DNA of 64,000 nucleotides, taken from the NCBI GenBank assembly GCA_031291305.1, contig JARLJH010000054.1:18004-82003 (forward strand), in the 5' to 3' direction. This stretch comes from Rhodoferax sp. Lineage in GTDB: Bacteria; Pseudomonadota; Gammaproteobacteria; Burkholderiales; Burkholderiaceae_C. Below are positions 40,037 to 64,000 of this stretch, in pieces (position 1 is the stretch's first letter; every line of letters begins with the position of its first letter). Made by a program: the position numbers and the translations under genes. Below the pieces are notes generated by a model. The model saw only the letters and a program-made list of their open reading frames with translations, did no database searches and had not been told where the DNA came from.

Positions 40037-40113
40037 GCGGCTGTAGCTCAGTTGGATAGAGTACTTGGCTACGAACCAAGGGGTCGTGGGTTCGATTCCT
40101 GCCAGCCGCACCA
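40037..40113 (+). tRNA. tRNA-Arg (ACG), integration site of the 8.5-kb element
   Basis: Full cloverleaf: acceptor GCGGCTG/CAGCCGC, anticodon stem CTTGG/CCAAG with loop CTACGAA (anticodon ACG), T arm GTGGG-TTCGATT-CCTGC, A-CCA. The 3' half from 40069 is part of a 96-bp direct repeat whose other copy lies at 48582. C48 is intact here (position 40085) but is A in the far copy. Confidence 0.96.
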
Positions 40114-40164
40114 ATATAATCAAGGGGTTACAGATTTCGGTCTGTAACCCTTTTTGGTTTTTGG
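40069..40164 (+). repeat. Left attachment site (attL), 96-bp direct repeat
   Basis: It begins at the anticodon loop of tRNA-Arg and runs 51 bp past the tRNA through its terminator. Identical to 48582-48677 except for one base (C at 40085, A at 48598). The intact tRNA is at this end. Confidence 0.93.
40125..40155 (+). terminator. Rho-independent terminator of tRNA-Arg
   Basis: A 10-bp perfect stem, GGGTTACAGA at 40125-40134 with 40141-40150, six-base loop, then five T. It is inside the duplicated att sequence, so an identical copy stands at 48638-48668. Confidence 0.9.
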
Positions 40165-40177
40165 TCGATTTACCCCT

Positions 40178-40204
40178 TCCGTGTCCCGCGTGTGTCCCGA
40201 TTAT
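40178..40204 (+). repeat. Subterminal 27-bp repeat, left copy (possible integrase arm site)
   Basis: Identical over 27 bp, and in the same direction, to 48410-48436. Within it GTGTCCCG occurs twice, 11 bp apart. It is 14 bp inside the left att core, while the other copy is 146 bp inside the right core. The arrangement suits arm-type integrase sites; function is inferred. Confidence 0.65.
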
Positions 40205-40248
40205 CAAAAGGCACAGTCTGCTTCCCCTCCCCCTTCATCCTTCCGGCT

Positions 40249-40719
40249 TCATGCGCGACTGCATATCGCGCTGAAGGGTATCCCCCAAACTCCCGCATTT
40301 ATGGCTGTGATGATTTCGCCTTCTGTAACGGTGCGCGATTTCGATATCAGGCATGGAAAGTCATAACCATCCGCAGCAAATTTTGCAAGAGCTTCGATAT
40401 CCGCAGTTGTTCTTGCGCTGAGGAGGTTTGAATCGTCCTTCCATTCCCGGTTCGCGGCGTACCAGCGATCAAACCTTTCTTGCAGTTCCCTTGCCAGATG
40501 CCGCGCTTCGATGCGTTGCGCCTTGGATGGATTTAACGGTGGCTGATACGGTTCGTAATATTCCGCCCACCGCGCAAACCGCACATGCCGTATCAAGCCA
40601 TAGAGCAGCGTCAAGTATTGGTCGTCGCCATCGGCAGCGTCAATGTATTCCGGGAGCGCCAGTGCATCGCGGGCGGCTTGAATATATCCTTCGTAAGTAT
40701 CGCAGTGCAGAGTTTCCAT
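40249..40719 (-). CDS. Unrecognised element protein, 156 residues
   Basis: I do not recognise this protein. It is soluble, acidic in the first half and rich in aromatic residues (LIRHVRFARWAEYYEPYQPP), with a charged helix at about 68-95 (AQRIEARHLARELQERFDRWYAANREW). No catalytic motif is visible. It is the leftmost gene of the element and reads towards attL. Upstream of its start lies the 21-bp repeat array, which could control it. It shares aromatic, helical style with the 200-residue protein at 42638, which may mean distant relation. Confidence 0.65.
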   Translation of the reverse strand: METLHCDTYEGYIQAARDALALPEYIDAADGDDQYLTLLYGLIRHVRFARWAEYYEPYQPPLNPSKAQRIEARHLARELQERFDRWYAANREWKDDSNLLSARTTADIEALAKFAADGYDFPCLISKSRTVTEGEIITAINAGVWGIPFSAICSRA

Positions 40720-40802
40720 ATGCTTCCCTATTTCAGTTGATCGAGCACACAGTATGGCGCATTGGTGAAGGGTTTACAAGGGCTTGCCAGTGTGATATAG
40801 AA

Positions 40803-40884
40803 ACGTACTAACTACCTGAATGTTAGTATGTTCGGCGAACTTGTTAGTACGTTCAACCGCTTAGTTAGCGGGTTCGACCACTCG
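40803..40884. repeat. Iteron-like array: three 21-bp units plus one inverted half
   Basis: GTTAGTATGTTCGGC at 40822, GTTAGTACGTTCAAC at 40843 and GTTAGCGGGTTCGAC at 40864 are spaced by exactly 21 bp. An inverted copy of the first ten bases of the middle unit is at 40803-40812. It stands in the 326-bp gene-free stretch 40720-41045 between two divergent genes; nothing else is visible there. Two helical turns per unit suggests a protein-binding array, either operator or replication iterons. Confidence 0.7.
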
Positions 40885-41045
40885 GAGCGAGGGGGTGGGC
40901 TGGACCATCGCAAGGCGTCGGGCGTTCGGATGGTGGGCCCACGTAGAGCAACTGCCAAAAATTGGTGACCTACACACGTTTTCCTAGACAAAGCGAAACT
41001 GCCGCCTATACTTCATTGTCAATAAATTAGAAATAGGGTCAGATT

Positions 41046-42074
41046 ATGCGTAATAGTATTTATGCACTTATCGTATTCAGCGCTGCGGTTTCCATGCAAC
41101 ACTCTTACGCAAATAACAGTAAATATCCGTCAAGCGATATATACGCAATTAGTGGCGAGGCCACAATATTTCTGGGGCCAAACGTTAGTCCGTTGAAGAA
41201 ATGCAATGGGCAAAGGTTTGGAGTCGAGACCAGCGGCGCTGTTGACGCAATGCACTTTCGAGACCTTTGCTACGTATTAAAGGGGGCAGGCAAAGTGCGG
41301 ATCACCGACCCCAACACGGGGAAATCGTTTTATATGAATCTTTCTGATTTTAAGCCCGCGCCAATCACACCGCCTGAAATTGTGCAGGAGGCGATCAAAT
41401 CAGCTAAAGTTCAGGTAGAAAAAAAAGTAATATCAAAATCTGCCAAGGTTCCGATAGCCAAACAGAAAGTTGCACAAACTCCGGTTCCGGTCGCCGAACA
41501 ACAGGTAGCGAAGCTACCAGAAGAGGACAGCCCTTGGCGATGGTTCAAGAAACAGCCAGAAAGCTATATCTTTTTATCCGAAGCGCCAAGCATCGAAAAG
41601 GGTTGTGAGGGGCAGAACGAAGCAAGCGAGCAAAATCTAGTTCTGGATAAGTGGATATGGATTCGTCACCTATGCTACGTAGTAGACAAATCGGGCAAGG
41701 TTAAAGTTACCGACCCTGCCAAAATGATGTTCTTCGATACGTTCACGCTGAATGCATCAGACTTCACGCGTATACCAACCAACGCGGAACAGGCGCAGAT
41801 CGAGCAGCAACAGCGAGCAAACCAATGGGCGCAGAATATCCGATCTGCACAGCAGCAAAATAACGAACGCGCCGCATACCAACCCACGTGGCAACCCAGA
41901 CAAAACACTTACCAAAACTTTGATCAAGAAAACCAAATGGCCGACCTGCAAGCAAGGCAGCGCCAACTGGAAATACAACAACAGGAGGCAGACGCAGAAA
42001 ACCGGATGCGGCTGCAGCGCATCCAGGACGATTACGATGCCCAACAACTACATCGTGACATTTGGCAGCAATGA
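41046..42074 (+). CDS. Exported protein with duplicated two-Cys domain and Gln-rich tail
   Basis: I do not recognise the family. 342 residues: signal peptide (1-22, ...HSYA), then domain A (about 40-106) and domain B (about 174-244), which are copies of each other. Shared marks are an IFL start, one Cys near KCNG/GCEGQ (C53, C187), a second in LCYV (C75, C210), then KVRITDP/KVKVTDP and LSDF/ASDF. An Ala/Val/Lys/Pro linker (110-160) joins them, and the tail (245-342) is Gln-rich and probably coiled coil. It runs against the backbone genes, as cargo often does. Two disulfides in the periplasm are likely. Confidence 0.75.
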   Translation: MRNSIYALIVFSAAVSMQHSYANNSKYPSSDIYAISGEATIFLGPNVSPLKKCNGQRFGVETSGAVDAMHFRDLCYVLKGAGKVRITDPNTGKSFYMNLSDFKPAPITPPEIVQEAIKSAKVQVEKKVISKSAKVPIAKQKVAQTPVPVAEQQVAKLPEEDSPWRWFKKQPESYIFLSEAPSIEKGCEGQNEASEQNLVLDKWIWIRHLCYVVDKSGKVKVTDPAKMMFFDTFTLNASDFTRIPTNAEQAQIEQQQRANQWAQNIRSAQQQNNERAAYQPTWQPRQNTYQNFDQENQMADLQARQRQLEIQQQEADAENRMRLQRIQDDYDAQQLHRDIWQQ

Positions 42075-42134
42075 AAACAGCGGGACACATGTGGCACCTA
42101 TCATGCACACCATAAATCATATATACATAACTAC

Positions 42135-42566
42135 ATGACTACCCAATTTGGCGATAAATTAGTTGATGAGGGAAATGAATATTCCATCAAACCGTTCCCG
42201 TTGAATGACCTTGCCGGAACCTGGAATACGGTCATCGTTGACGGCGAAGAAGTGCCACGGTTTCGCGCTTCCAGTTCCGCATGCTGGCGTGGCTACATCG
42301 CAACTTGGACCATTGAAGACGGCAAACTCTACCTGACAAATTTTGCTGCCAAAGATAGGAACCGCGCCGATCTAACCATGCACGATGTGTTTGGTGCAGA
42401 TCGCCTGTTTGCAATCTGGTTTACTGGTGAGTTGTCTAGTCCATTCGGCAATCGAATATCTGGAAGGTATGAACCGATGTTCGAGCAGAATAATGTTTGG
42501 CAGTTTGAAAAAGGCGTGCTCCTACAGCGCTTCGTCCGCAACAATCACGCCCCTGCCGCAATCTAG
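42135..42566 (+). CDS. Unrecognised element protein, 143 residues
   Basis: Function unknown. The sequence looks like a compact beta-rich domain: alternating strands such as GTWNTVIVDGEEV, GYIATWTIEDGKLYLTNF and LFAIWFTGEL, with many Trp and Phe. No signal peptide or membrane helix. It lies 60 bp after the exported duplicated-domain gene, in the same direction, so the two are likely one transcriptional unit and may work together. Confidence 0.65.
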   Translation: MTTQFGDKLVDEGNEYSIKPFPLNDLAGTWNTVIVDGEEVPRFRASSSACWRGYIATWTIEDGKLYLTNFAAKDRNRADLTMHDVFGADRLFAIWFTGELSSPFGNRISGRYEPMFEQNNVWQFEKGVLLQRFVRNNHAPAAI

Positions 42567-42637
42567 GATTACCACTGGCAACACGAGATAAACGGCAAGA
42601 GTCAGTAGCAGGCAATGACAATAGCGTGCCCTCCCGA

Positions 42638-43240
42638 CTATACCTCGCCGGTAATTTTCCGCATGTGGTCAATGAACGGTAGCCAGTCTTCATAATACCA
42701 TTCGATAAGCGCGGCCTTATATTCGGTCCACCGTTCCGACCATTTCGCCTTCCCGGTCAAATGTGCCGTCCGCTGGTCAATACCATGCAGGGCGCGGCTG
42801 TATGCGGAAACGATACGTTCAAACTCATGGCGGTACTGTCTACTAGGGTCAATGCTCAACATTTCCAGCGCCGCGCATGCGGGGTAAATTCGGTCGCCGG
42901 TTTCAGGTACCCACGCCGTGACAAGCGTGCACCATTCTTTATATTCAGGGGCGGGCCATTCCCGCATGACGGTGGAGTATTCAAGTCGGGCATGCAATAC
43001 CCGCGCCGCCTCCGCTACATGGTCTCGTGCATGGAGTAGCGCCATATCAGGCAGGGCTACTGATATTTCATATTCTCGCGTCGCTCGCCCAACGTGTTCA
43101 TGAGTGCCGCCGTAGGCAAAATATGCGTGCTGGAATGCTCTACCTTTGAAATTAGGCGACCATGCACGGGGTTTTCCGTCCAGTCTGGCTATGATGGCTT
43201 TAGCTGCATCAGTGGCGATCTTCGTTGAATCGATTGTCAT
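42638..43240 (-). CDS. Unrecognised element protein, 200 residues
   Basis: Function unknown. It appears all-helical and soluble, with a moderately basic N-terminus (IDSTKIATDAAKAIIARLDG) and Trp/Tyr-rich C-terminus (WTEYKAALIEWYYEDWLPF). It lies in the same direction as the primase, 58 bp past the winged-helix gene, and is probably in that operon. Confidence 0.65.
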   Translation of the reverse strand: MTIDSTKIATDAAKAIIARLDGKPRAWSPNFKGRAFQHAYFAYGGTHEHVGRATREYEISVALPDMALLHARDHVAEAARVLHARLEYSTVMREWPAPEYKEWCTLVTAWVPETGDRIYPACAALEMLSIDPSRQYRHEFERIVSAYSRALHGIDQRTAHLTGKAKWSERWTEYKAALIEWYYEDWLPFIDHMRKITGEV

Positions 43241-43298
43241 TTAAAATTCTCCTATATGAATGGTGTTGCAGTTGGTTACCTGTCTTTGCGTAGTGGGG

Positions 43299-43664
43299 TC
43301 AATCAGGCGGGGGAACCCAGTACCGCAAATTCCGGCCTGCTACTGACCAGTCGCGCCGGGGGAGAAAACCATTGACACGCAGCGCGGCACCTATCATGCG
43401 GACGGCGGGCCGGTCTCGGTATCTCCCGGCGAACTTCGTCAATAGCTCCTCTGTCGTGTATCTGCGCTGCCGCGCCGCTGGGGGTATTGAGCTATACCAC
43501 TCGCGGATTAAAACGGCGTAGTCGGTCTGTATTCGGTTCCGTGCGGCGGTTTTCCGCTGTTGGATAGCGTCATCCTGTTTTGCTGCGATGGCTTGGGCTT
43601 CGATTTGTTGCCGAAGCTGGCCCATGATCTCGCGCATGCGTGGGGCCAATTGCGGTGGCGGCAT
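43299..43664 (-). CDS. Small protein with winged-helix-like C-terminus, downstream of primase
   Basis: 121 residues from ATG 43664, preceded by GGAG at 8-base spacing. The frame stays open to GTG 43745, but those codons fall in the arm of the long inverted repeat and are unlikely to be translated. The N-terminal half is a Gln/Ala-rich helix; the C-terminal part (YTTEELLTKFAGRYR, VRMIGAALRVNGFLPRRDW, GRNLRYWVPP) resembles the wing domain at the end of P4-type primases. It may help in origin binding. Similarity is by eye. Confidence 0.65.
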   Translation of the reverse strand: MPPPQLAPRMREIMGQLRQQIEAQAIAAKQDDAIQQRKTAARNRIQTDYAVLIREWYSSIPPAARQRRYTTEELLTKFAGRYRDRPAVRMIGAALRVNGFLPRRDWSVAGRNLRYWVPPPD

Positions 43665-43701
43665 GTCTGTTTCTCCATATTCATCATCGTTATTCGGTAA
43701 A

Positions 43702-43807
43702 AGTGGTGGACAGTGGTGGAGTTTGGGGTTTTTCAATGTTTTCACACAAGGAAATTTTTATAGAGAAAAACCCCAAAAAAGCCCCAACTCCACCACTGTC
43801 CACCACT
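43702..43807. repeat. Long inverted repeat with tandem GTGGTGGA units, candidate origin
   Basis: Bases 43702-43723 are perfectly complementary to 43786-43807, and the stem continues with 43725-43734 pairing 43765-43774. An 11-base bulge sits on the right arm and the loop is about 30 bases. Each outer arm holds two GTGGTGGA units separated by CA. It lies just past the primase stop and before the winged-helix gene. Confidence 0.8.
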
Positions 43808-43826
43808 CCATGAACAAATTACGCCG

Positions 43827-46340
43827 CTATCGCTTCGCCATACCTCTGTAGTATGCGCCTTGATTATTGGCCCCTTTGCTGCATCCCCGGTCCTTCAGTT
43901 TCTGCGAAAAAGTTTGGTTGCTAATTTGGCGGTGCCCATTGTTGAACGACCAGTTTTTGTAACTTGCATACGCTTCGCCAGCACGGATTTGTAGGTCAGC
44001 GCCAATGGTGCACTCGTCGTCAATCCAATGCTGCACTAAATCCATATCGGACTTGTACGCTTCGATCTGCCGGACAATCTCCGTTGGGCGGTCGAGTCCT
44101 CGCCGTTGCCATTCGATGCATCCGGCTATAAGCCAGTTCAGGATGCCGGGGCGTTCATTGCACAAAAGTTCCGGCAGGTGTTTGTTCTGCTCGCTTGGTA
44201 AAAATTTGTGGTCAAAGCCGATCATTACCAGCCGCCGCCATATACCGTAGTCGTTGCCGCGAATGACCGGACGATGATTGCCAGCTAACCAAAGTTTGAA
44301 CAGCGGAACGAAGTCGAACGGTGCGCCGTGCAAGACTCTGGCAGTCATGGCATCCCCGCCCGTAAGCTGTTTCACCATTGCTTCCGCAAGCCGCTGCCCT
44401 TCTTCGGTCTCATTCGCGGCGACGAATCGCGGGCCTGCCAACCGGGCAATTTCAGGTGTTGGCCCGGAGGCGTTAATGTTGGATTTCGCCATCAACACTT
44501 CAGGTGAGGTCTGTATGCCATAACTACCGGCAATTTCGCGCAATACATTTAATACGGTTGATTTACCGTTAGCGCCGCTACCATACAAGAAGAACAAACA
44601 TTGCTCCGACGTGCTCCCGGTTATCGAATACCCCGCCGACCGCTGAAAGAAAGCCACTACTTCCGGGTTTTCATTAAGCACTGTATTGATCGTAGCTTCC
44701 CAAACCGGACAGGTTGCCCCGGCGACATACTCAACATTCATGCGGCGTGTAATCAAGTCATCGGCAGTCGCTGGCCGGAATTCGCCAGACCGCAGATCAA
44801 CGACGCCATTTAGCACACCGATTAAAAACGGGTTGGCGTCTAGTTCGCTCGCTGCAACTGGAATTCCAGCGCATGATTTCATCAACTCGATTGCAGCCGC
44901 TATTCTGGAAAGCGACAGGCTATTGCTCGCATGCTGCGCAAGACGCTTCGCATCGCCGGTATGACTTTCCTGCTTGGCCTCGTCATATATGCCACGCATA
45001 ACGCCCGTGGCGTACTGCACCACGCCGCCACGGCCATCCCAGCGCCAGTGCATGTCATCCCAAACCAGCCATCCCGCCAAGTCCTTGCACCAGCGTAGCC
45101 GCCCCGCAGCGGCCCTTACAATACGATCTGCGTTGCCAGCGTCGTTAAGGTCTTGCAGTTTGCCGGACGGGGCATTGAGTGCTGAAGCTGCTGCTACGGC
45201 GACCCGCCCCAACTGTATTGGCGATGTGATTTTCCCTTTGTGTGTGCAACCGTCGCACCCAGTGGGATTATGCTGGCCAAAGAACTGGCAGGTAGTCGGC
45301 CCCGCGTTCCATGTGTCGAGTTTCTGCTGGGTTTCGGCATTGCTATACTGCGGACTTTTCCCGCTCCAGACATGGGCTATCGCTTCGCCGCCTTCGCAAT
45401 GCTTCACGATTCCGATGACGCCACGCCACGTATCGTATCCATCACCACCATTCTCGCGCACGCGGGCGATTTGCTGGCATCGGTCTGCAATCAAGTTCGC
45501 GTCGATTGGCGCATCTGGGTAAGCGCGTGCCGTCATGTGCCCGGTAAGATCGCTATTCATACCGTCTGTATATGCAGTAACGTGCTCAATACATACATCG
45601 TAGTTGGCGACGATGTTGCTTAGTATGGCAATGAATTCCGAAGGTGTATGCGATACTGCCTTGTTCCCGATTGCCTTGACCTCTTTAAGTGCATCAGGGT
45701 TCTTTTTGTTGTGACTACCTACCGGGCGCAATATCGACGCCATGTCAGCGGTGCGCGACGGATCGGCCCGCACGCCAAACTTTTTTAGCACGGCCTTCAA
45801 GGTAACAGCCTGTACCTTCCATACGTCTGGCGGGATGGCTTCGGTCAACGGCCAGTAGGCATGCAAACCATTGCCAGACGATACCAGCACAGGGACAGGA
45901 AAGCTGGTTAGTTTGCAGAAGTTGGATATGGCTATTGCCGCGTCTCGTTTTGTGACGTAGCCTTTACCTTCCGCCGCTTTTGCAGGCCCACAGTCCAGAT
46001 CGATCCAAAACGCCTTGGCGGATAGCAGATTTTCAGACGTTCGGTATTTTCGCTTATCGCCATCGACAACGAACGCCTTCTTGTATGCCGCGCATGCATG
46101 GTAGACCTGCACGCCGGGCTTCTTGTTGAATGCGTCCACCGCTTCGGCCAGTGCTTCCAGACTGTCGCAAGCGATGTGCGCCACGCCGGGACGTCCAGTG
46201 CGCACTACGCACGCATAGTAGTTGCCCTCAACGGGTAGGATGGTGTGAAAAAATTCAAGCGCGGTCATCGCGGTCGCCGTGATCGCAGTTGCGCCGTTTC
46301 CATGTTTAGGTATATTGGTAAAGCTGGTATCATTCATCAT
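43827..46340 (-). CDS. P4/D5-type primase-helicase of the element
   Basis: 837 residues. The N-terminal archaeo-eukaryotic primase-like domain has the metal-binding FWIDLDCG (D114, D116) and SSGNGLHAYW with H160, then LRPVGSHNKK. A PriCT-2-like region with cysteines at 351, 362 and 365 follows. The SF3 helicase has Walker A GSGANGKST (587-595), a downstream acidic ANETEEGQ box and KLWLAGNHRPVI. The C-terminus looks like a small winged helix. It would prime and unwind the excised element. Start ATG 46340 or 46337. Confidence 0.92.
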   Translation of the reverse strand: MMNDTSFTNIPKHGNGATAITATAMTALEFFHTILPVEGNYYACVVRTGRPGVAHIACDSLEALAEAVDAFNKKPGVQVYHACAAYKKAFVVDGDKRKYRTSENLLSAKAFWIDLDCGPAKAAEGKGYVTKRDAAIAISNFCKLTSFPVPVLVSSGNGLHAYWPLTEAIPPDVWKVQAVTLKAVLKKFGVRADPSRTADMASILRPVGSHNKKNPDALKEVKAIGNKAVSHTPSEFIAILSNIVANYDVCIEHVTAYTDGMNSDLTGHMTARAYPDAPIDANLIADRCQQIARVRENGGDGYDTWRGVIGIVKHCEGGEAIAHVWSGKSPQYSNAETQQKLDTWNAGPTTCQFFGQHNPTGCDGCTHKGKITSPIQLGRVAVAAASALNAPSGKLQDLNDAGNADRIVRAAAGRLRWCKDLAGWLVWDDMHWRWDGRGGVVQYATGVMRGIYDEAKQESHTGDAKRLAQHASNSLSLSRIAAAIELMKSCAGIPVAASELDANPFLIGVLNGVVDLRSGEFRPATADDLITRRMNVEYVAGATCPVWEATINTVLNENPEVVAFFQRSAGYSITGSTSEQCLFFLYGSGANGKSTVLNVLREIAGSYGIQTSPEVLMAKSNINASGPTPEIARLAGPRFVAANETEEGQRLAEAMVKQLTGGDAMTARVLHGAPFDFVPLFKLWLAGNHRPVIRGNDYGIWRRLVMIGFDHKFLPSEQNKHLPELLCNERPGILNWLIAGCIEWQRRGLDRPTEIVRQIEAYKSDMDLVQHWIDDECTIGADLQIRAGEAYASYKNWSFNNGHRQISNQTFSQKLKDRGCSKGANNQGAYYRGMAKR

Positions 46341-46466
46341 GTGTATAGAACCCCTTGCGCTCGCTTCGACTGGCGCATTTTTTTTGTCTGTTGATTGTGC
46401 GTGTACTCAATCAAGCCGTTTCGGTGATTGTGTTGCTCGCTGCCGTGTGTCGCTTCGCGTTCGCAG

Positions 46467-46688
46467 TTAAGCGGCAACTGGATGGCGTGTCGATTGCAAC
46501 GACGCTTCCCAATCCGCAATGGCAGACGCCATCCATCCAACAGACCGCACGCCAATCTTCACGGGGGCAGGGAACAGACCGTTCGCAATGTCGCGGTAGA
46601 TACTGGAGCGGGATTTGCCGACGCGCCGCATTAGCGCAGGTAGCTTCAAAATGTATGGGGATACTGGGTAAGTGGTATTTTCAGACAT
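46467..46688 (-). CDS. AlpA-family transcriptional regulator / excisionase-like
   Basis: 73 residues with one winged helix: LPALMRRVGKSRSSIYRDIANGLFPAPVKIG then VGWMASAIADWEASL, the AlpA pattern of P4-like elements. AlpA regulators activate integrase genes or act in excision. It lies between integrase and primase, 126 bp before the primase start, and probably controls both. Confidence 0.92.
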   Translation of the reverse strand: MSENTTYPVSPYILKLPALMRRVGKSRSSIYRDIANGLFPAPVKIGVRSVGWMASAIADWEASLQSTRHPVAA

Positions 46689-47039
46689 GGAATGGCCTCG
46701 ATATAGATTAGGTCATTCCGCTGCGCGAGATGGGGACCATCACAATTCTGATGCGATGACCGCAGTATGGAGATGCAGTTTTTTACTCTGGCGGTCTTCG
46801 GCTCGCCGGTCTCCGAAAGCGTCCCCATGAACCAGACACTAAGCGGGCCAGACCTTGCCTACCGCAGTAACTTAAATAGGAGCTTCCCATAAAAGCGCGG
46901 TGGGGGTCAAGGAGTTTGTAGCGTGTGTATTAAGATTTTTAATCGATGAAAAGTGCATACGCGCTGCTATAACGCCCGTACTATTTAAGCTATATCGGGC
47001 GCTCTGCCGCACCGCATTTTCGCAACACGTACGCACCTA
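46689..47039. other. Gene-free stretch between AlpA and integrase genes
   Basis: 351 bp without a supported gene. It holds the upstream region of the AlpA gene and the downstream end of the integrase gene. A 60-codon frame on the minus strand (46646-46828) overlaps the AlpA start and has no recognisable content. An imperfect palindrome (GCCCG...CGGGC) near 46974-47000 might terminate integrase transcription, but no T-run follows it. Confidence 0.4.
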
Positions 47040-48401
47040 TCACGCCCTAGCCGCAGACCGCTGCATTGTGATTACGTTGACGGCACCGCTAGTAAGTAGG
47101 TCAAGCCGTTCACCAAGCAACCGCCATGCTTCTTGCTGTTCTGCCTTCAATTCTTGGCGCTGGTAGATACGTATCAGTTTATTTTGTTCGACGTGGTTCA
47201 ATACCTTTTCAACAACGTCTGGGCGAACACCCAGCCCGCCCATAATCGTGGCACCAGTGCGCCGCAGATCGTGGGGGGTCCACTCCCCACCAGCCAGTAA
47301 TAAAGCGCCTGTAGCCTTGCTGCGGTTCTTCATTGGCACGGTGCGCTGCCGGTCGTGAATCTGCTTACTGATCGATTTCAAGCACACGTGCTGATCGTCT
47401 TTATTCTCTGCTGGGTAACACCATGCAGTCTTACCGCTAATAGCGTGAAGCTTTTTAAATTGTTGAATACTGAAGTCGGAAAGCAACACTGTATGCGCTT
47501 TCCCGTTCTTCGCATTGTCTGGCGGTATGCGCCATGTACCAGCGTCAATAGCAACGTCCTCCCAGCGTGCGCGGGATATCTCACCAACCCGACAGCAAGT
47601 GGACAACATCAACCAGAGTGCAATTTCTGTTGACGCTTGCAACTTGGCAGTGGGTAACTTGTCTTGCAGTTCTTTAATTTCGGCATCGCTTAGAACCCGG
47701 TCGCGTTCGTTTTTCGTGCCGTAATCGTTCCGCTTTAGGTGCGACGTGGGGTCATTTTCGAGAATCCCGCGCTTAATAGCAAAGCTGGCCATCTGTCGAA
47801 GATCGCCCAACAGGTTACGGGCAACAATCGGTGCGCCACGTTCCACGATGGTATCCAACACGGCGGCGATCATCGAACGGGTTACATCAATCGCGGCCAC
47901 CTCCCCCAGCGTAGGCAGTACATCCTTTTCAAAGCTGCGGCGCACCTCTGCCCCGCCGTCCTTCCGCGCCTTCAATTCGATGCGCTCCCAGCGGTCAAGT
48001 AGTGCGCCTATGGTCAATCGTGCCTCGTGCGCTTCCCTAGCCCGGTTCGCTTCGTCCTCTGCGATCTGCGCAGCAAGCAACTTTGCCTTATGTTCGGCTT
48101 CCAGTGCTGCGACATTCCGTTCAAGCTGTTCGTGGTAATCGACGCCCGTTTTAGCAAGGGTCCGAATTGCCCGCGCTGCTTCCCGCGCACCTTGCAGGGT
48201 CATAAATCCCGCGCCACCATCGGCACGGTAGGATTCCGGTAGGCTGTATTGACGGGTTTTGCCGTCCACCACATACCGGACAAGCCAAGTCTTTGTACCG
48301 TCAACTGCGATGCGTAGCTGCAACCCTTCACCGTCCACCAGCTTATATGCTTTGTCCTTTGCCTTCGCCAACTCGATAGCGCGTGCTGTCAACTTCGCCA
48401 T
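47040..48401 (-). CDS. int: Tyrosine recombinase (integrase)
   Basis: 453 residues from ATG 48401; the frame extends upstream through a repeat to 48476 but the family start is MAKLTARAIELAK. The order is the DUF4102-type arm-binding domain (about 1-90), core-binding helices (about 120-230), then the catalytic domain. Its residues are Arg in CCRVGEISRARW, the HxxR pair in TPHDLRRTGA, His in VLNHVEQNK and the nucleophile Tyr in IRIYQRQ. It inserts the element at tRNA-Arg. It points away from the nearby attR at its 5' side. Confidence 0.95.
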   Translation of the reverse strand: MAKLTARAIELAKAKDKAYKLVDGEGLQLRIAVDGTKTWLVRYVVDGKTRQYSLPESYRADGGAGFMTLQGAREAARAIRTLAKTGVDYHEQLERNVAALEAEHKAKLLAAQIAEDEANRAREAHEARLTIGALLDRWERIELKARKDGGAEVRRSFEKDVLPTLGEVAAIDVTRSMIAAVLDTIVERGAPIVARNLLGDLRQMASFAIKRGILENDPTSHLKRNDYGTKNERDRVLSDAEIKELQDKLPTAKLQASTEIALWLMLSTCCRVGEISRARWEDVAIDAGTWRIPPDNAKNGKAHTVLLSDFSIQQFKKLHAISGKTAWCYPAENKDDQHVCLKSISKQIHDRQRTVPMKNRSKATGALLLAGGEWTPHDLRRTGATIMGGLGVRPDVVEKVLNHVEQNKLIRIYQRQELKAEQQEAWRLLGERLDLLTSGAVNVITMQRSAARA

Positions 48402-48409
48402 AAAAACCC

Positions 48410-48436
48410 TCCGTGTCCCGCGTGTGTCCCGATTAT
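48410..48436 (+). repeat. Subterminal 27-bp repeat, right copy
   Basis: Identical to 40178-40204 and in the same direction. It stands just upstream of the integrase start, so integrase bound here could also control its own promoter. Confidence 0.65.
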
Positions 48437-48581
48437 TGGTGGATTCACTGAACCAAAATGAAACCCCTTGAGACAAAGTATACCAAGGATTTTCTATAAC
48501 TTGTTGATTTTAATTGGTATATTTTTTAGATATACGGTGTCATACATACGCCATACCGTTTGAAATAGCTGTCGTACCTTT

Positions 48582-48677
48582 CTACGAACCAAGGGGTAGT
48601 GGGTTCGATTCCTGCCAGCCGCACCAATATAATCAAGGGGTTACAGATTTCGGTCTGTAACCCTTTTTGGTTTTTGG
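48582..48677 (+). repeat. Right attachment site (attR), tRNA-Arg 3' end remnant
   Basis: 96 bp, one mismatch to attL. It holds the 3' half of tRNA-Arg without any 5' half, so it is not a working tRNA gene, and the terminator copy at 48638-48668. The mismatch changes the conserved C48 to A. Confidence 0.93.
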
Positions 48678-48940
48678 GCCATTTGGTAAGAAAAAATCCG
48701 CCGATTATATTCTTCGGTGCAGTTTTTGCGAAACAGATTCACGACTCGATTTTAATCCCTAATCCCGAACCGTCGCGCCACACTCGCAAGCGCCGCATTG
48801 GCCGATGCATGACGCTCGCGTGCGTCGTCGATTCGCGCAATAGCGATCTTGAACCCTTCCCGCCACCGGATGACGAACGGCGCCCGCGCTGCCCTGCTCC
48901 ACAACCAGTCTCTTCCCACTCCGTCGGCGAAGAAGATAAA

Positions 48941-48970
48941 AAAACGCGCCGGGAATCTCCGGCGCGTTTT
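48941..48970 (-). terminator. Terminator after ompW, bidirectional in form
   Basis: A 12-bp perfect stem (48941-48952 with 48959-48970, six-base loop) has A and T tracts on both sides. It lies about 30 bp past the ompW stop. The remaining bases from 48678 to 49001 hold no supported gene. Confidence 0.88.
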
Positions 48971-49001
48971 TATTTGCACATTGCTAGCAGCGCAAATTCT
49001 C

Positions 49002-49619
49002 TTAGAAGCGATAGCCGACGCCCACACCCACCAACAGCGGATTGAGTTGCGCGTTGCTGACCTTGGTGCCTTCGACGTAGACGTCGCTGCTGATCCAGAC
49101 TTTCTTCAGGTCGAGATTGATCGACCAGTTTTTGTCGATCTTGAAGTCGACGCCGGCCTGCAGTGCGCCGCCGAAGCTCTTGTGTTCGAGAGTGACCACG
49201 CCACCCAACAGATTCTGGCTCGAGATGTTGGTGTAGTTGATACCGGCGCCGACATACGGGTCAATCGAATTTGTCGGCAAGAAATGGTATTGCGCCGTCA
49301 ATGTCGGCGGCAGCGCCTTGAAGCTACCGATTTTACCGAGGCCATCAACCGAAACGTCGAGCTTTTGCGGGTAGGTCAAGATCAGTTCCGCAGCGATATT
49401 CGGCGTGAAAAAATAGGAAATGTCGAGTTCCGGGATTGTCTTGTTGGACACGCTGATTGCGTCCGATCCGGCGATGCCGTCGGAAAACGCATCGGATTTG
49501 TTCACCGGCTCGATATTGACGGCCCGTACCCGCACCAGCCACGGACTTTCTTGCGCGGCTGCGCTGTTTGCGACGAACCCGATGGCGACCGCTGCCAATG
49601 CTAAGACTGCTTTTTTCAT
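49002..49619 (-). CDS. OmpW family outer membrane protein
   Basis: 205 residues. Signal peptide (1-22, ...AAAQ), start of barrel ESPWLVRVRAVNIEP, the IPELDISYFFTPNIAAEL and PTLTAQYHFLP strands, and a C-terminal Phe (GVGVGYRF) for the barrel machinery. This is an eight-stranded porin for small hydrophobic compounds. An AAGGA ribosome site precedes the ATG, and an FNR-type palindrome lies about 140 bp upstream, matching the oxygen control known for enterobacterial ompW. Confidence 0.93.
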   Translation of the reverse strand: MKKAVLALAAVAIGFVANSAAAQESPWLVRVRAVNIEPVNKSDAFSDGIAGSDAISVSNKTIPELDISYFFTPNIAAELILTYPQKLDVSVDGLGKIGSFKALPPTLTAQYHFLPTNSIDPYVGAGINYTNISSQNLLGGVVTLEHKSFGGALQAGVDFKIDKNWSINLDLKKVWISSDVYVEGTKVSNAQLNPLLVGVGVGYRF

Positions 49620-49759
49620 ATTCTTATTCCTTCATTAGTTACCGTTGAAAATTCTTAGATCAATATGCCTTGTTGCCCTGCTCATTCTCATCAAAATATT
49701 CCGAGCGCGCAGTCAAAAAAACACTAGCGATATGGTCGGCGAGAATGCAGACTTATATA

Positions 49760-49773
49760 TTGATGTAGATCAA
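49760..49773. promoter_or_regulatory. FNR/ANR-type binding site upstream of ompW
   Basis: TTGATGTAGATCAA is a perfect TTGAT-N4-ATCAA palindrome. Its centre is 147 bp before the ompW start on one side and about 445 bp before the cyclase gene on the other. Apart from this and a small frame at 49913, the stretch 49620-50211 shows nothing. Confidence 0.72.
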
Positions 49774-49912
49774 AATTTCTGCTTCAGTCCGCGATAGCGA
49801 TATATTCGTCGCCGATTTCGTCAATTGGTCGCGCATGCCATGGTTTTTGCTCGGCAACAAATCTATCCGATTGGGCGTTGGACCTATTCCACCTCACTTG
49901 GAGGTGCTACCC

Positions 49913-50008
49913 ATGTTCTCGCTCTTCGATCCGCTCACACCCGCCAATATGTGCGAACAGATATCCGACTTGCGGCGTACCGAAAACTTGAATCCAGCCA
50001 CAGACTGA
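49913..50008 (+). CDS. Possible 31-residue small protein
   Basis: ATG 49913 is preceded by a strong ribosome site, GGAGGT at seven-base spacing. The frame reads MFSLFDPLTPANMCEQISDL and ends in TGA. I know no homologue. It lies 200 bp before the nucleotide cyclase in the same direction and might be a leader or small protein. Support is the ribosome site only. Confidence 0.35.
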   Translation: MFSLFDPLTPANMCEQISDLRRTENLNPATD

Positions 50009-50211
50009 TGTCACTTGAAGCAAGCTCTTTGGGCATGCCCATCCGAAACGCCAGGGCAATCGATGGAAGAATTGCGCATGGCGGCGTTCCCTAAGACTTG
50101 CCCTCGACGATGACCGGGCTCCACGTACTTGCCGATTGTCATGCGTGTTGCGCCGGCCCGGCTCGTGTAGTATCTTTGCCGAATCAATTCCAGATCATCG
50201 AACGAGGACCA

Positions 50212-51450
50212 ATGCTTATCGTATCTCGCCCACCGTCGGTAGATCCGAAATTGATTTGCAATGCGGAAGGCTGGTCGCTTTGGCCGACTGCACTCATGCT
50301 GCTGGGTCAGTCGGAGAACATTGACGACATGGTCACCCTGGTGGGCAAGCTCGTGCGCTCGCTGGAGGAGGCCGGTGCGCCGCTCAGCCGGCTCCGATTA
50401 TCGACCATGACGCTGCATCCCCTGGTTACCTCCTGGGGCGCTCGATGGGCAGGCGGAGAGGCCATTGAGGCGATGGAATTTCCTCACGACCGGATACATT
50501 CAGGCGAGTATGTCGGGAGTCCGGCACAACATGTGCGCGAGACTGGAACAGCTTTCCGTTGCCGCCTGGAAGGCATCCTGACCGTCGACGATCATCGCCT
50601 CCTCCACGAACTAAAGGACGCCGGCGCCACCGATTATTACGCGGCGCCGTTGGCGCGCCGCGCAAGGGAGGGCGGCTTCCTCACCCTCTGCACCGACAGA
50701 CCGGGCGGTTTCACCGCCCTCGACATTGCCAAATTCGATGCGTTGGCACTGATGGTGGCTCCTCATGCCCACTCCCTCAACCGCTACCGGATTGCCACCA
50801 GTTTGCTTGAAACCTATGTCGGACGGCGCGCCAGCGCGCGCGTTCTTGACGGACACGTTCGGCGCGGCGACTACGAGCACATCAGGGCCGCCTTATGGTA
50901 TTCGGATCTTCGGGATTTCACCCAGATGAGCGAAGACCTGGAGTCGAACCAGATGCTGGATCTGTTGAATACCTACTTCAGCGTCGTCTCGAAAGCCGTG
51001 ATCGAGCGTGGCGGCGATATCCTCCAATTCATCGGCGATGCAGTGCTGGCCGTGTTTCCCTGCGCAGTCGATGCCGCTTCGACAGCAGCCGCCTGCGAAG
51101 CGGCTTTCGACGCTGCCGTCGAGTCGTTGACGGAAATCGTCGAGGTAAACAGGACGCGCGCGGCGGCGGGCCTGCCGGAAATCCACTTCGGGATAGGCTT
51201 GCATTTCGGCGATGTTGCATTTGGCAACGTTGGGGCAATCGACCGCCTGGGCTTCAATGTCATCGGGCCCGCAGTCAATCTCACCGCAAGACTGGAAAGT
51301 CTTTCAAAGCAGGCGATGGTGCCGTTGCTGCTTTCGCAGCCATTGGCCGATGTTATCGACCGCGCATTGTCACCAGTAGGCAGTTTTCAACTCAAAGGCG
51401 TCCGGGAATTGCAGGCGGTGTTTACCGCCGCCGATCTGGTACAGAAATAG
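50212..51450 (+). CDS. Class III adenylate/guanylate cyclase
   Basis: 412 residues from ATG 50212, with GAGGA just before it; an open frame begins at 50098. The N-terminal 200 residues form an unrecognised sensory region, GAF-like in its second half (VDDHRLLHELKDAGATDYYAAPL). The cyclase domain begins about residue 225: metal site YSDLRDFTQMSED, second Asp in GGDILQFIGDAVLAVF, and GNVGAIDRLGFNVIGPAVNLTARLESL. The usual substrate-specifying Lys is Gln here and the Asp position is Gly, so substrate choice is uncertain. No partner gene is adjacent. Confidence 0.85.
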   Translation: MLIVSRPPSVDPKLICNAEGWSLWPTALMLLGQSENIDDMVTLVGKLVRSLEEAGAPLSRLRLSTMTLHPLVTSWGARWAGGEAIEAMEFPHDRIHSGEYVGSPAQHVRETGTAFRCRLEGILTVDDHRLLHELKDAGATDYYAAPLARRAREGGFLTLCTDRPGGFTALDIAKFDALALMVAPHAHSLNRYRIATSLLETYVGRRASARVLDGHVRRGDYEHIRAALWYSDLRDFTQMSEDLESNQMLDLLNTYFSVVSKAVIERGGDILQFIGDAVLAVFPCAVDAASTAAACEAAFDAAVESLTEIVEVNRTRAAAGLPEIHFGIGLHFGDVAFGNVGAIDRLGFNVIGPAVNLTARLESLSKQAMVPLLLSQPLADVIDRALSPVGSFQLKGVRELQAVFTAADLVQK

Positions 51451-57724: not shown

Positions 57725-59116
57725 ATGGGCAGCTACACACATATGGTGGGCAATCGAACGTATCGATTTGGAGACCTGCGGGACCTGATGGCAAAGGCCA
57801 CCCCGGAGCGCTCGGGCGACCACCTGGCCGGGCTGGCAGCCGCCAGCGCGGAAGAGCGCGTGGCCGCCCAGATGGCATTGGCCCAATTGCCGCTGCGGAC
57901 TTTTCTAAACGAAATGGTGGTGCCCTACGAATCGGACGAGGTGACCCGGCTCATCATTGACCGGCATGATCCGATCGCGTTTGAACCCATCGCCAGCCTG
58001 ACGGTGGGCGACTTTCGCAATTGGCTGTTGAGCAACAACGTGGACGAATACGTGCTGGCCTCGGTTGCCGGCGGCATCACGCCCGAGATGGCGGCGGCGG
58101 TTTGCAAGATCATGCGCAATCAGGACTTGATCCTGGTGGCACGCAAATGCCGAGTCGTGACCCGTTTCCGCAACACTATCGGCCTGGCGCAGCGCCTGTC
58201 GACAAGGCTGCAACGCAACCATCCCACCGACAGCGCAAGCGGCATCGCTGCCGGCATCTTCGATGGCCTGCTGTACGGCAGTGGCGATGCGGTGATCGGC
58301 GTTAACCCCGCCGGCGACAATGTGCCGCAGATCGTCAAGATTGTCTCCATGCTGGACGAGATCATCTCCGGTTTTTCCATCCCCACCCAGTCTTGCGTGC
58401 TGACCCACGTAACCAACACCATCGCCGCCATCGAGCGCGGTGCTCCGGTGGATTTGGTTTTCCAGTCGATCGCCGGAACCGAGGCCGCCAACGCCAGCTT
58501 CGGCATCAACCTGAAATTGCTCGACGAAGCGCGCCAGGCCGCATTGTCGTTACGACGCGGAACGGTGGGCAACAATGTGATGTATTTCGAGACCGGACAG
58601 GGCAGCGCACTATCGGCCAACGCAAATCATGGCGTCGACCAGCAAACCTGCGAAGCGCGTTCCTATGCGGTGGCGCGTGAATTTCAACCGTTGCTGGTGA
58701 ACTCGGTGGTCGGCTTCATTGGGCCGGAGTATCTGTACGACGGCAAACAAATCATCCGCGCCGGATTGGAAGATCATTTTTGCGCCAAGCTGCTAGGCTT
58801 GCCGATGGGCTGCGACATCTGCTACACCAACCACGCCGAAGCCGACCAAAACGATATGGATGTGCTGCTGACCGTGCTCGGCGCTGCCGGCTGCACCTTC
58901 GTGATGGGCATACCCGGCTCGGACGACATCATGCTCAACTACCAAACCACTTCCTTTCATGATGCACTCTATGCGCGCTGCGTGCTCGGGCTGAAGCCGG
59001 CGCCGGAATTCGAGGCATGGCTGAAGGAAATGGGAATTGTTGGCACCGATGACTCCTGGCCGTCGGGCACGGTGCTGCCGCCGCAGTTCCAAAACGCGCT
59101 GCGGAGACTGCAATGA
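57725..59116 (+). CDS. eutB: Ethanolamine ammonia-lyase large subunit
   Basis: 463 residues, the family length. It begins with YTHMVGNRTYRFGDLRDLMAKATPERSGD, and has the active-site GSGDAVIGVNPAGDN and ALSANANHGVDQQTCEAR segments. The C-terminal PEYLYDGKQI and MGCDICYTNHAEADQND complete the barrel. With EutC and adenosylcobalamin it splits ethanolamine into acetaldehyde and ammonia. Its stop overlaps eutC as ATGA. No eutA, aldehyde dehydrogenase or microcompartment genes are nearby. Confidence 0.97.
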   Translation: MGSYTHMVGNRTYRFGDLRDLMAKATPERSGDHLAGLAAASAEERVAAQMALAQLPLRTFLNEMVVPYESDEVTRLIIDRHDPIAFEPIASLTVGDFRNWLLSNNVDEYVLASVAGGITPEMAAAVCKIMRNQDLILVARKCRVVTRFRNTIGLAQRLSTRLQRNHPTDSASGIAAGIFDGLLYGSGDAVIGVNPAGDNVPQIVKIVSMLDEIISGFSIPTQSCVLTHVTNTIAAIERGAPVDLVFQSIAGTEAANASFGINLKLLDEARQAALSLRRGTVGNNVMYFETGQGSALSANANHGVDQQTCEARSYAVAREFQPLLVNSVVGFIGPEYLYDGKQIIRAGLEDHFCAKLLGLPMGCDICYTNHAEADQNDMDVLLTVLGAAGCTFVMGIPGSDDIMLNYQTTSFHDALYARCVLGLKPAPEFEAWLKEMGIVGTDDSWPSGTVLPPQFQNALRRLQ

Positions 59117-59922
59117 GCAAGACCAACGAAGACGAGCTGGTGACGCCCAATCCCTGGCAAGCGTTGCGCCGCTACACGGATGCACGCATTGCGCTCGGCC
59201 GCGCCGGCATCAGTCAACCGACCGCGCCACAATTGGAATTCCAGTTGGCGCATGCGCGCGCCCGCGATGCTGTGCACCTGGCACTCGACAGCGTCGCTCT
59301 TGAAGATAAATTGGCGCAAACGCTGGCACTCGCCTGCCTGAAACTGCATAGCGCGGCGCCGAACCGGCAAGTCTATTTGCAGCGCCCGGATCTCGGGCGC
59401 AAACTGGACGACGCCTCGCGCCAGTTGTTGCAAACGTGCGCGTTTCGCGCCACCGATCTGGCGATCGTCATTGCGGACGGCCTGTCGGCGCTCGCCATCG
59501 AGTTGAATGCCTTGCCCTTTCTGCAGGTTTTGATGCCCCGCCTGGCACAGGAGTCCTGGGCCCTGGCGCCGCTATGCATCGTGCAACAGGGCCGCGTGGC
59601 GGTGGGCGACGAAATCGGCCAGACTCTCAACGCGCGGGCGGTCGTCGTGTTGATCGGAGAACGTCCCGGCCTCAGCTCGCCCGACAGCATGGGTTTGTAT
59701 CTGAGTTGGAACCCACATCCCGGTTTGCGTGATGCAGACCGCAATTGCGTATCCAATGTTCGAGCGGCTGGCCTGAATTATGAGACCGCCGCCGAAAAGC
59801 TGCACTACCTGTTGACGCAATCGCGTCTGCGCCAACTTTCCGGAATTGCCTTGAAAGAAGAAACGCCGGGCCCTGCCCTGCCGGATATGGCGGAACACAA
59901 TTTCCTGCTAGAACGCGACTGA
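59113..59922 (+). CDS. eutC: Ethanolamine ammonia-lyase small subunit
   Basis: 269 residues. Family segments are ARIALGRAGISQPT, RPDLGRKLDDASRQLL, VIADGLSALAIELNA and the cobalamin-contact LIGERPGLSSPDSMGLYLSW, then DADRNCVSNVRAAGLNYETAA. It completes the EutBC enzyme. The order eutB-eutC with a 4-bp overlap is the usual one. Confidence 0.97.
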   Translation: MSKTNEDELVTPNPWQALRRYTDARIALGRAGISQPTAPQLEFQLAHARARDAVHLALDSVALEDKLAQTLALACLKLHSAAPNRQVYLQRPDLGRKLDDASRQLLQTCAFRATDLAIVIADGLSALAIELNALPFLQVLMPRLAQESWALAPLCIVQQGRVAVGDEIGQTLNARAVVVLIGERPGLSSPDSMGLYLSWNPHPGLRDADRNCVSNVRAAGLNYETAAEKLHYLLTQSRLRQLSGIALKEETPGPALPDMAEHNFLLERD

Positions 59923-62687: not shown

Positions 62688-64000
62688 GCGCATTGCTGTC
62701 CGGGATAAATATGTTGACAAGGCCGAAAGGGGTTGCAGGCACTGATTTAAAGGGTTAAAACCCTGTTTGCCAACTTAAAAATCAGACCTGCAACATGTTT
62801 AGGATAACCAGATTTCAAGAATTAATGAAGGGGGTGCCGCGAGGTGCCTTCGACCACATCGTTAAAAAGCACAATGGCGACAAGTACAGCAAGCAATTCG
62901 GCCACTGGGAGCACATGGTGGCGATGATATACGCCCAGCTAAGCGGTGCAACAGGCCTGCGTCCGCTGGAAACGAGCTTCAACAGCCAGATTGCGCACCA
63001 CTACCATTTAGGGACTGGATGCATCAAGCGATCCACGCTGGCCGATGCAAACAGCGCACGTAAGGACGCAGTGTTTGCCGACACGGCGGAATATCTGATG
63101 CAAAAAGTATCGCGCCAATTGCGCAAACAAGGCCAAGAATTGCTGTATTTGCTGGATTCGACTTCGATTACGCTCAAGGGCAGGGAGTTCGATAGCTGGA
63201 CATTGTGCAACAAGACGCGAAATACGCAAGGAATCAAGCTTCATGTGCTCTATGCAAAGAAAACTCAAGTGCCCGTCTGGCAAAGCATCAGCGCCGCCAA
63301 CGTCAACGATGTAGAAAAGGCTGTGGATGTACCGCTGCAGCGGAGTGCAACGTACGTTTTTGATAAAGGTTACTGCGACTACAACTGGTGGCATCGCATT
63401 GAGACGGCAGGAGCATGGTTTGTCACCCGCTTCAAAAGCAATGCCGGGGTACGCATCGAGCAGGAGCGCGCCATTTCCGAACTGGCTACCGGCACGGTAC
63501 TGCAAGATCAGATTGTTCGCTTCAAATACAAACACCAGGGCGGTAAGCGCATCAATCATTACGAGAAGCCACTGCGCCGCATCGCGATTGCCAGGCACGA
63601 CAAACCAACGCCGTTGATATTGGCGACCAATGACTTGACCAGTGACGCATTGGAAATAGCACAACGATACAAGGAACGCTGGGAAATCGAACTCTTCTTC
63701 AAATGGGTCAAACAACATTTGAAGATAAAGAAATTCCTGGGGCGCACCGAAAATGCTGTGCGCATCCAATTATTGACGGCTTTGATCAGCTATTTGCTGG
63801 TCGCACTATACAAACAGGCGCACGGTTTCAAGAAAAGTCTTTGGGATTGCCTATGCTTGATTCGCGCCACATTGTTTCAGCGCCCGGATATCGACGCCTC
63901 CGCATACCGGAAACGACGACGACAGGTTGAAGAAATGGCGCGAGTCCAGTTGGGATTATTCTCATGAATGTCAATAAAATTATCCCGGACAGCAATGCGC
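62688..64000 (+). mobile_element. IS4-family insertion sequence, both ends in window
   Basis: The first 21 bp (62688-62708, core GCATTGCTGTCCGGGATAA) are exactly complementary to the last 21 bp (63980-64000). The element is about 1.31 kb and carries one transposase gene. The outermost two bases could belong to the target duplication; the right flank is outside the window. Confidence 0.92.
62795..63967 (+). CDS. IS4-family transposase
   Basis: 390 residues. An N-terminal DUF4372-like region (MFRITRFQELMKGVPRGAFD) precedes the DDE domain. The catalytic residues are Asp in YLLDSTSITL, Asp in VFDKGYCDYNWW and Glu in the Y-x2-R-x3-E-x6-K signature within YKERWEIELFFKWVKQ. The gene is intact and the ends are perfect, so the IS may be active. 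Confidence 0.95.
   Translation: MFRITRFQELMKGVPRGAFDHIVKKHNGDKYSKQFGHWEHMVAMIYAQLSGATGLRPLETSFNSQIAHHYHLGTGCIKRSTLADANSARKDAVFADTAEYLMQKVSRQLRKQGQELLYLLDSTSITLKGREFDSWTLCNKTRNTQGIKLHVLYAKKTQVPVWQSISAANVNDVEKAVDVPLQRSATYVFDKGYCDYNWWHRIETAGAWFVTRFKSNAGVRIEQERAISELATGTVLQDQIVRFKYKHQGGKRINHYEKPLRRIAIARHDKPTPLILATNDLTSDALEIAQRYKERWEIELFFKWVKQHLKIKKFLGRTENAVRIQLLTALISYLLVALYKQAHGFKKSLWDCLCLIRATLFQRPDIDASAYRKRRRQVEEMARVQLGLFS

What the first reader, a model, noticed from the sequence alone, without database searches (positions are those of the whole stretch)
40069..48677. Sharply bounded 8.5-kb integrative element without virion or conjugation genes
A 96-bp direct repeat from the tRNA-Arg anticodon loop through its terminator marks both ends. 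Inside are integrase, AlpA-type regulator and P4/D5-type primase-helicase, but no structural or transfer genes. About half the genes are unrecognised. This is the layout of phage satellites that carry defence or fitness cargo, and it is the best candidate here for an undescribed system.
Basis: partly seen in the sequence, partly recalled or inferred. Interest (0 to 1): 0.75.

Follow-up and report, generated by a model that had tools for sequence, protein, structure and literature searches.

The report
Small satellite-like island in tRNA-Arg
This is a real 8.6-kb mobile DNA element sitting in a bacterial arginine-tRNA gene and built like the small satellites that parasitise bacterial viruses; relatives of it carry anti-virus genes, so its unknown cargo is a reasonable but unproven place to look for new ones.

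Summary
A 96-bp direct repeat (one mismatch; 40069-40164, 48582-48677) bounds an element with integrase, AlpA and an 837-aa primase-helicase, and no recognised structural or transfer gene. Its anatomy is that of P4/PICI-type satellites: paired arm-site repeats inside both ends, and a predicted origin directly 3' of the primase (inverted tandem ~10-bp iterons around an AT-rich gap). A rule for that inverted repeat is met at 20 of 26 related primase loci, 0 of 2600 shuffles and 10 of 1241 other ORF ends. A small protein behind the replication gene (orf148) recurs in five other loci; one of them carries a phage virion protein, the best support for a satellite. No helper-hijacking gene was found and one portal family is absent from this genome, so satellite status is inferred. 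Crossover lies on the T-arm side of the tRNA, not in the anticodon loop. The site is empty (tRNA-Arg, then spoT) in nine congeners, but this genome's right-hand neighbour is not the ancestral one: the locus is compound or rearranged. No cargo gene is a known defence gene; the orf143 family occurs beside Zorya I (three loci, two of them sisters), and related elements carry restriction-modification and HEC-01. New variant of a known kind.

The parts
40037..40113 (+). Intact (restored) tRNA-Arg(acg), the integration site
   Evidence: ARAGORN
40069..40164 (+). attL: left copy of the 96-bp direct repeat (tRNA 3' part plus terminator)
40175..40204 (.). Predicted integrase arm sites next to attL: 30-bp repeat with two tandem GTGTCCCG
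   Evidence: same arrangement annotated in P4 and seen in L076
40249..40719 (-). orf156, unknown
   Evidence: ORF; no family hit above chance; no viral-contig relative; not searched in genomes
41046..42074 (+). orf342, unknown, predicted exported (signal-peptide-like start)
   Evidence: home-made rule; only own genome among 250 of the order
42135..42566 (+). orf143, member of a small-protein family found beside Zorya I and on the congener element L144
42638..43240 (-). orf200, unknown
   Evidence: only own genome among 250 of the family; no plasmid match
43299..43745 (-). orf148, small protein behind the replication gene; the GTG start overlaps the predicted origin, a later ATG near 43664 is more likely (inferred)
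43702..43807 (.). Predicted replication origin: inverted pair of tandem ~10-bp iterons around a 64% AT stretch
43827..46340 (-). Primase-helicase, P4 family (D5_N, DUF5906, TIGR01613), 837 aa
46467..46688 (-). AlpA-type excisionase/regulator
   Evidence: Pfam PF05930 4e-13; 40% over 50 aa to P4 ORF88
47040..48401 (-). Tyrosine integrase with arm-binding domain (likely ATG start at 48401)
48407..48436 (.). Predicted integrase arm sites upstream of int: second copy of the 30-bp repeat
48582..48677 (+). attR: right copy of the 96-bp repeat, with A for C at tRNA position 48

Best explanation
An intact integrative element of the P4/PICI/PICMI type, most likely a phage satellite. Integrase, directed by tandem arm sites on both sides of the core, recombines the element in and out of the T-arm side of tRNA-Arg(acg) and restores the tRNA gene (the restored tRNA and both att ends are shown by sequence; arm-site use is inferred). 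AlpA acts as excisionase or inducer (inferred from its family and from PICI and PICMI work). The primase-helicase starts replication of the excised circle at the iteron origin just behind its own gene (origin predicted, binding not shown), perhaps with orf148 (inferred from position). A helper phage supplies capsid and packaging (inferred only). The cargo (orf342-orf143, orf156, orf200) most likely protects the host against competing phages, partly at the envelope (the weakest step).
For: att ends, tRNA and empty sites. Arm-site pairs with the geometry annotated in P4 and seen in L076. Predicted origin rule met at 20 of 26 primase loci vs 0 of 2600 shuffles and 10 of 1241 ORF ends; inter-arm AT 64% vs 48% for the element; published PICI origins lie at the same place with two iteron sets around an AT-rich region (passages of PMC6092414). 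L077 joins a related primase (47% over 482 aa), AlpA and orf148 with a virion structural protein, phrog_8003 E=3.4e-48. PICMIs show that int-AlpA-primase elements without capsid genes can be phage satellites (passages of PMC10803314). Defence genes on related elements: L050 type III R-M and HEC-01, L133 type IIG R-M; L146 anti-restriction protein; orf143 family beside Zorya I and PDC-M16.
Against: No psu/sid/delta-, terS- or capsid-type gene recognised. The phage portal family PF04860 is absent from the own genome (0 of 1; it rings in 4 of 14 controls), so no resident helper of that type is seen; other portal families were not tried. L144 and L076 carry orf148 but not the same origin arrangement. 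Six of 26 primase loci miss the origin rule, P4 among them. No cargo gene matches PADLOC convincingly. Exported-cargo enrichment is weak (7 of 32 vs 12 of 176, p=0.014, home-made rule). Only one genome of this species is at hand and excision is not shown.
Confidence: 0.68

Rival explanations
1. A mobilisable integrative element: it excises and replicates itself but is moved by a conjugative helper through a cis-acting oriT, not by a phage.
For: No capsid, packaging or hijack gene found; no PF04860 portal in this genome.
Against: No relaxase or transfer gene among the 8 ORFs; AlpA plus P4-type primase plus origin is the satellite plan; relative L077 carries a virion protein. oriT was not searched.
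Confidence: 0.12
2. A decayed or domesticated island that no longer moves and is kept for its cargo or only by chance.
For: The right-hand neighbour is not the ancestral one, so the locus has been rearranged or built up; no mobility evidence in hand.
Against: att ends (95 of 96 identical), integrase, AlpA, primase, arm sites and predicted origin are all without visible damage.
Confidence: 0.1
3. An integrated plasmid-like replicon that spreads without a phage helper.
For: P4-family primases are also found on plasmids (412 of 72,556 records match).
Against: Only 1 of those records covers 80% or more of the primase, at 34% identity; no partition or copy-control gene recognised.
Confidence: 0.05

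Closest known systems
Gram-negative PICIs such as EcCICFT073 (PMC6092414, passages read)
   Same: int at one end, AlpA, primase/initiator, origin immediately 3' of it with two iteron sets around an AT-rich stretch, no structural genes
   Different: 8.6 kb against the typical size of about 15 kb given for Gram-positive PICIs; not all genes in one direction (orf342 and orf143 face the other way); no recognised interference or packaging gene; tRNA-Arg site; induction untested
PICMIs of Vibrionaceae (PMC10803314, passages read)
   Same: int-AlpA-primase core, no capsid-remodelling genes, very small, DUF5906 domain in the primase
   Different: tRNA-Arg instead of fis; primase has D5_N and no DUF3987 hit; orf148 present; helper unknown
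Phage P4 (NC_001609; record read)
   Same: tandem arm-site pairs on both sides of the core, AlpA-type Vis/ORF88 (40% over 50 aa), alpha-type primase-helicase with repeats (crr) directly 3' of it, type I repeat TGTTCACC close to this element's TGTCCACC
   Different: no psu, sid, delta or epsilon recognised; integrase only 24% and primase 25% identical; another tRNA
   Same: same tRNA-Arg(acg), integrase 57% over the alignment (54% by BLAST), orf148 36%, arm geometry, A at position 48 of attR
   Different: other replication genes (491 and 217 aa), other cargo, 7.4 kb, no matching inverted-repeat origin
   Same: primase 47% over 482 aa, AlpA, orf148 29%, same origin plan
   Different: unrelated-grade integrase (23%), near tRNA-Ser, carries a virion structural protein; its ends were not mapped

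Membership tests
P4-like satellites | integrase, AlpA and alpha primase-helicase | tested here: met
P4-like satellites | helper-hijack genes psu, sid, delta (epsilon) | tested here: not met
   no such hit for the 8 ORFs in Pfam, PHROGs, NCBIfam; gene list from PMC8628076 passages
P4-like satellites | tandem arm sites on both sides of the core; repeats 3' of the primase | tested here: met
   the P4 crr itself misses my gap rule (45 bp)
Gram-negative PICI | origin immediately 3' of the initiator, two iteron sets around an AT-rich stretch | tested here: met
   against PMC6092414 passages; sequence only
Gram-negative PICI | all genes transcribed in one direction | tested here: not met
   orf342 and orf143 are on the other strand
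Gram-negative PICI | phage-dependent induction, packaging and interference | not testable with these tools
   needs experiments
PICMI | int, AlpA and primase without capsid-remodelling genes | tested here: met
PICMI | integration next to fis | tested here: not met
   site is tRNA-Arg
PICMI | primase with DUF3987 and DUF5906 | tested here: not met
   DUF5906 1.5e-6 only, plus D5_N; no DUF3987 hit
Integrative conjugative or mobilisable element | relaxase or transfer genes | tested here: not met
   none among the 8 ORFs; oriT not searched
Known anti-phage defence system (cargo) | cargo matches PADLOC models | tested here: not met
   no convincing match for the five unknown proteins

The most novel reading that the evidence does not exclude
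The element belongs to an undescribed lineage of minimal satellites in this bacterial order, marked by orf148 directly behind the replication gene; and its opposite-strand pair orf342-orf143 is an undescribed anti-phage module, orf143 being the cytosolic partner of an exported or membrane protein and a recurrent companion of Zorya I.
Probability: 0.22. Interest if true: 0.62.

Novelty: new variant of a known kind. Interest (0 to 1): 0.42.

Why it matters
It extends the int-AlpA-primase-origin satellite plan to elements that look phage-dependent yet carry none of the known hijack genes. It offers two handles: a sequence-independent signature of the origin behind P4-type primases, usable to find such elements, and a small protein family (orf143) that recurs beside Zorya I and on satellite-like elements and can be tested for anti-phage activity. 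If the cargo protects, this tRNA-Arg site is a satellite-borne defence hotspot.

Tried and rejected
Close relatives of the primase by exact peptide patterns: none in genome contigs, one distant in viral contigs. orf148, orf200 and orf156 in viral contigs: none. orf342, orf200 and orf148 on plasmids and orf148 in phages: none. Exact iteron word in viral contigs: one hit inside a coding frame, taken as coincidence. orf148 as a free copy of the primase C-terminal domain: rejected, hhalign probability 0.4%. Solved structures with orf148: only weak coiled-coil matches, best E 0.008. AlphaFold without alignment: orf143 mean pLDDT 37, useless; orf148 72, a long helix plus small helices, not searched further. 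Crossover in the anticodon loop: rejected, since attL has C and attR has A at position 48 in 4 of 4 elements with both ends read. orf342 to HopBF1 in NCBIfam (E 0.005, 16 bits against a cut-off of 200): taken as chance.

Exported cargo: with a home-made signal-peptide rule 7 of 32 cargo ORFs in six elements vs 12 of 176 background ORFs, Fisher p=0.014; each of the six has at least one. The rule was changed after the first look and single calls changed (L076 258 aa was positive, then negative; L146 142 aa the reverse). Limits of L077, L144 and L146 in that count were set by eye. L085 was included although it has no orf148.

Rows dropped or thin: L147 (weak orf148 match, E 6.5e-4) showed no other shared gene. 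L145 is a contig-edge locus. In one search, 14 locus ids were on a skip list before the count, as duplicates or sub-stretches (L147 for its weak hit). Many of the 26 loci are close kin; I see about six clearly different iteron words. The 10 ORF-end control hits include the window primase and the L085 primase; two others lie in L050. The six misses are L011, L026, L048, L080, L083 and P4. L144, L076 and L085 were not among the 26 (no BLAST match to the two query primases); one search shows no such arrangement in L144 and L076 and a short one in L085. For orf143, 10 of the 12 non-own genome hits were fetched; with 3 plasmids and L144 that makes 14 neighbourhoods, of which L164, L167, L171, L172, L173 and L174 were not scanned with PADLOC and the others only in part. 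The half-site search among 54 integrase relatives used one 9-nt word only; L087 has the intact tRNA but no half-site and was left out of the attR tally, whose letters were entered by hand.
Full report
OBSERVATION. The window is G000:C19:18004-82003 of a 69-contig draft genome. A 96-bp direct repeat with one mismatch bounds 40069-48677; the left copy lies in an intact tRNA-Arg(acg). The element holds an integrase, AlpA, an 837-aa P4-family primase-helicase and five unrecognised proteins. No structural, packaging, transfer or known defence gene was recognised among the 8 ORFs scanned.

INTEGRATION. Just inside each end lies a 30-bp repeat holding two tandem GTGTCCCG (40175-40204; 48407-48436). 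These four are all the + strand copies of that word in the window; one copy lies on the other strand at 42081. P4 is annotated with the same arrangement: tandem 12-bp arm repeats on both sides of its core. Element L076, in another family of the order, sits in tRNA-Arg(acg) with an integrase 57% identical over the alignment (54% by BLAST) and shows the same geometry with another word, GTGCCCAAC. The integrase has an arm-binding domain. Of 54 integrase relatives, 8 show a tRNA-Arg half-site upstream of int, seven within about 250 bp and L091 about 1.1 kb away.

CROSSOVER. In the four elements with both ends read (window, L050, L076, L085) the intact tRNA has C and the displaced copy A at the same position (48 by tRNA numbering, recalled). 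Eight of 12 attR copies carry A and four carry C (hand tally). In L076 and L085 the two ends differ again only after the CCA end. So exchange occurs between position 48 and the tRNA 3' end, the T-arm side, not in the anticodon loop where the repeat begins.

REPLICATION. Directly 3' of the primase stop lies an inverted pair of tandem ~10-bp iterons around a 64% AT stretch, against 48% AT for the element. L077, L146 and L082 show the same plan with other iteron words and nearly the same spacing (62-63 bp). Over 26 loci with a related primase, 20 meet a fixed rule (14-nt arms with at most one mismatch, gap 50-80 bp, start within 80 bp). Controls: 0 of 2600 Markov shuffles and 10 of 1241 ORF ends, two of which are primases of this kind. 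Many of the 26 are close kin. P4 has its crr at the same place but misses my gap limit. PICI origins are described as immediately 3' of the initiator gene with two iteron sets around an AT-rich region (PMC6092414, passages). So the origin is of a known kind; its function was not tested.

A MARKER PROTEIN. orf148 has relatives in 2 of 249 other order genomes, 2 of 320 other class genomes, one of them weak, and 2 of 59 other genus genomes. In L076, L077, L144, L145 and L146 it stands just behind the replication gene. L077 combines a related primase (47% over 482 aa), AlpA, the iteron origin and orf148 with a phage virion structural protein, phrog_8003, E=3.4e-48. That is the best evidence that this replication module belongs to phage satellites; L077's own ends were not mapped. 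L146 carries an anti-restriction protein. Against a single fixed module: L076 and L144 carry orf148 with other replication genes and without this origin plan.

CARGO. orf342 is predicted to be exported; among 250 order genomes only the own one has it, and no plasmid does. orf200 was found only in the own genome among 250 of the family. orf156 was searched only in viral contigs and family libraries. orf143 has relatives in 12 of 299 other order genomes, three plasmid records, one weak, and the congener element L144. In L149 it follows ZorD1 of Zorya I within about 55 bp; in L150 a partly matching copy follows the candidate system PDC-M16 by about 118 bp. In the sister loci L168 and L169 it stands divergent to ZorA1, with ZorB1 and ZorC1 identified in L168. 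In L144, L166, L168 and L169 it is paired with a membrane protein that the window lacks; there it follows orf342. Four of 14 neighbourhoods looked at are next to a known or candidate defence system, at most three independently, and six were not scanned. Related elements carry true defence genes: L050, at the same site in a congener, has type III R-M and HEC-01; L133 has a type IIG R-M enzyme next to its integrase. A defence role for the window cargo is plausible, not shown.

CONTEXT. In nine of 14 fetched congener loci tRNA-Arg is followed by spoT: the empty site. L050 holds another, 16-kb element there; L053, L055, L056 and L061 showed no spoT in the stretch fetched. In this genome spoT (92% to that of G254) lies on contig C11 behind a half-tRNA with a G254-like terminator and a second integrase, 40% to this one. 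The sequence right of attR (48690-51450) has only weak matches in 5 of 59 other congeners. The osmC/ycaO-type gene further right (52.6-54.8 kb; named by eye) occurs at 80-89% DNA identity elsewhere in at least 16 congeners (capped list). So the locus is a tandem array or rearranged; the draft cannot tell. The terminator inside the repeat resembles that of another congener, L059, rather than the one beside spoT, so this att sequence probably came from elsewhere in the genus (inference).

HELPER. The portal family PF04860 is absent from the own genome (0 of 1; control 4 of 14 genomes). Other portal or terminase families were not tried, so a resident helper is neither shown nor excluded.

JUDGEMENT. 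By mechanism it works like P4, PICI or PICMI. It is not filed in any of them, because a defining feature of each was tested and not met (hijack genes; gene direction; fis site). I call it a new variant of a known kind. Library searches for such elements, Zorya accessory genes, tRNA sublocation and satellite origins showed no description of this family in their listings; I read passages only of PMC10803314, PMC8628076, PMC2647930, PMC6092414 and PMC7145576, and most subscription papers are not held.

Noticed in passing
L168:3148-7084, L169:3965-7147, L149:1096-5444: A two-gene unit (orf143-like plus a membrane protein with a PFGHLN motif) stands divergent to ZorA1 in two sister loci, and an orf143-like gene follows ZorD1 on a Nitrosospira plasmid: a possible Zorya I companion.
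   Followed up: partly
L050:1760-17694: A different 16-kb element at the same tRNA-Arg of a congener carries type III restriction-modification and HEC-01.
   Followed up: partly
G000:C11:43172-43224 (L004, L062): A second half-tRNA-Arg with another integrase beside spoT on another contig of the same genome: the ancestral right side of this site.
   Followed up: partly
L059:1733-13079; L060:1794-7971: In two congeners tRNA-Met and tRNA-Arg are pushed apart by 11-16 kb, in L060 with a repeated tRNA-Met 3' end at 7922-7971: the neighbouring tRNA-Met may also be an insertion site.
   Followed up: no
window 40800-40880: Repeated and inverted TTAGTAnGTTC-like words in the divergent gap between orf156 and orf342, operator-like by eye.
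   Followed up: no
window 57725-59922 and 62795-63967: Genes that look by eye like ethanolamine ammonia-lyase subunits and an IS transposase right of the element; the transposase could have taken part in a rearrangement.
   Followed up: no
L174:828-11988: A long same-strand run of small genes (about 100-210 aa), one a distant orf143 relative, resembling an immunity-gene array by eye.
   Followed up: no
L011-L025, L082 (primase 3' ends): The inverted tandem-iteron arrangement behind P4-type primases recurs with different words in many genomes of the family; could serve as a search signature.
   Followed up: partly
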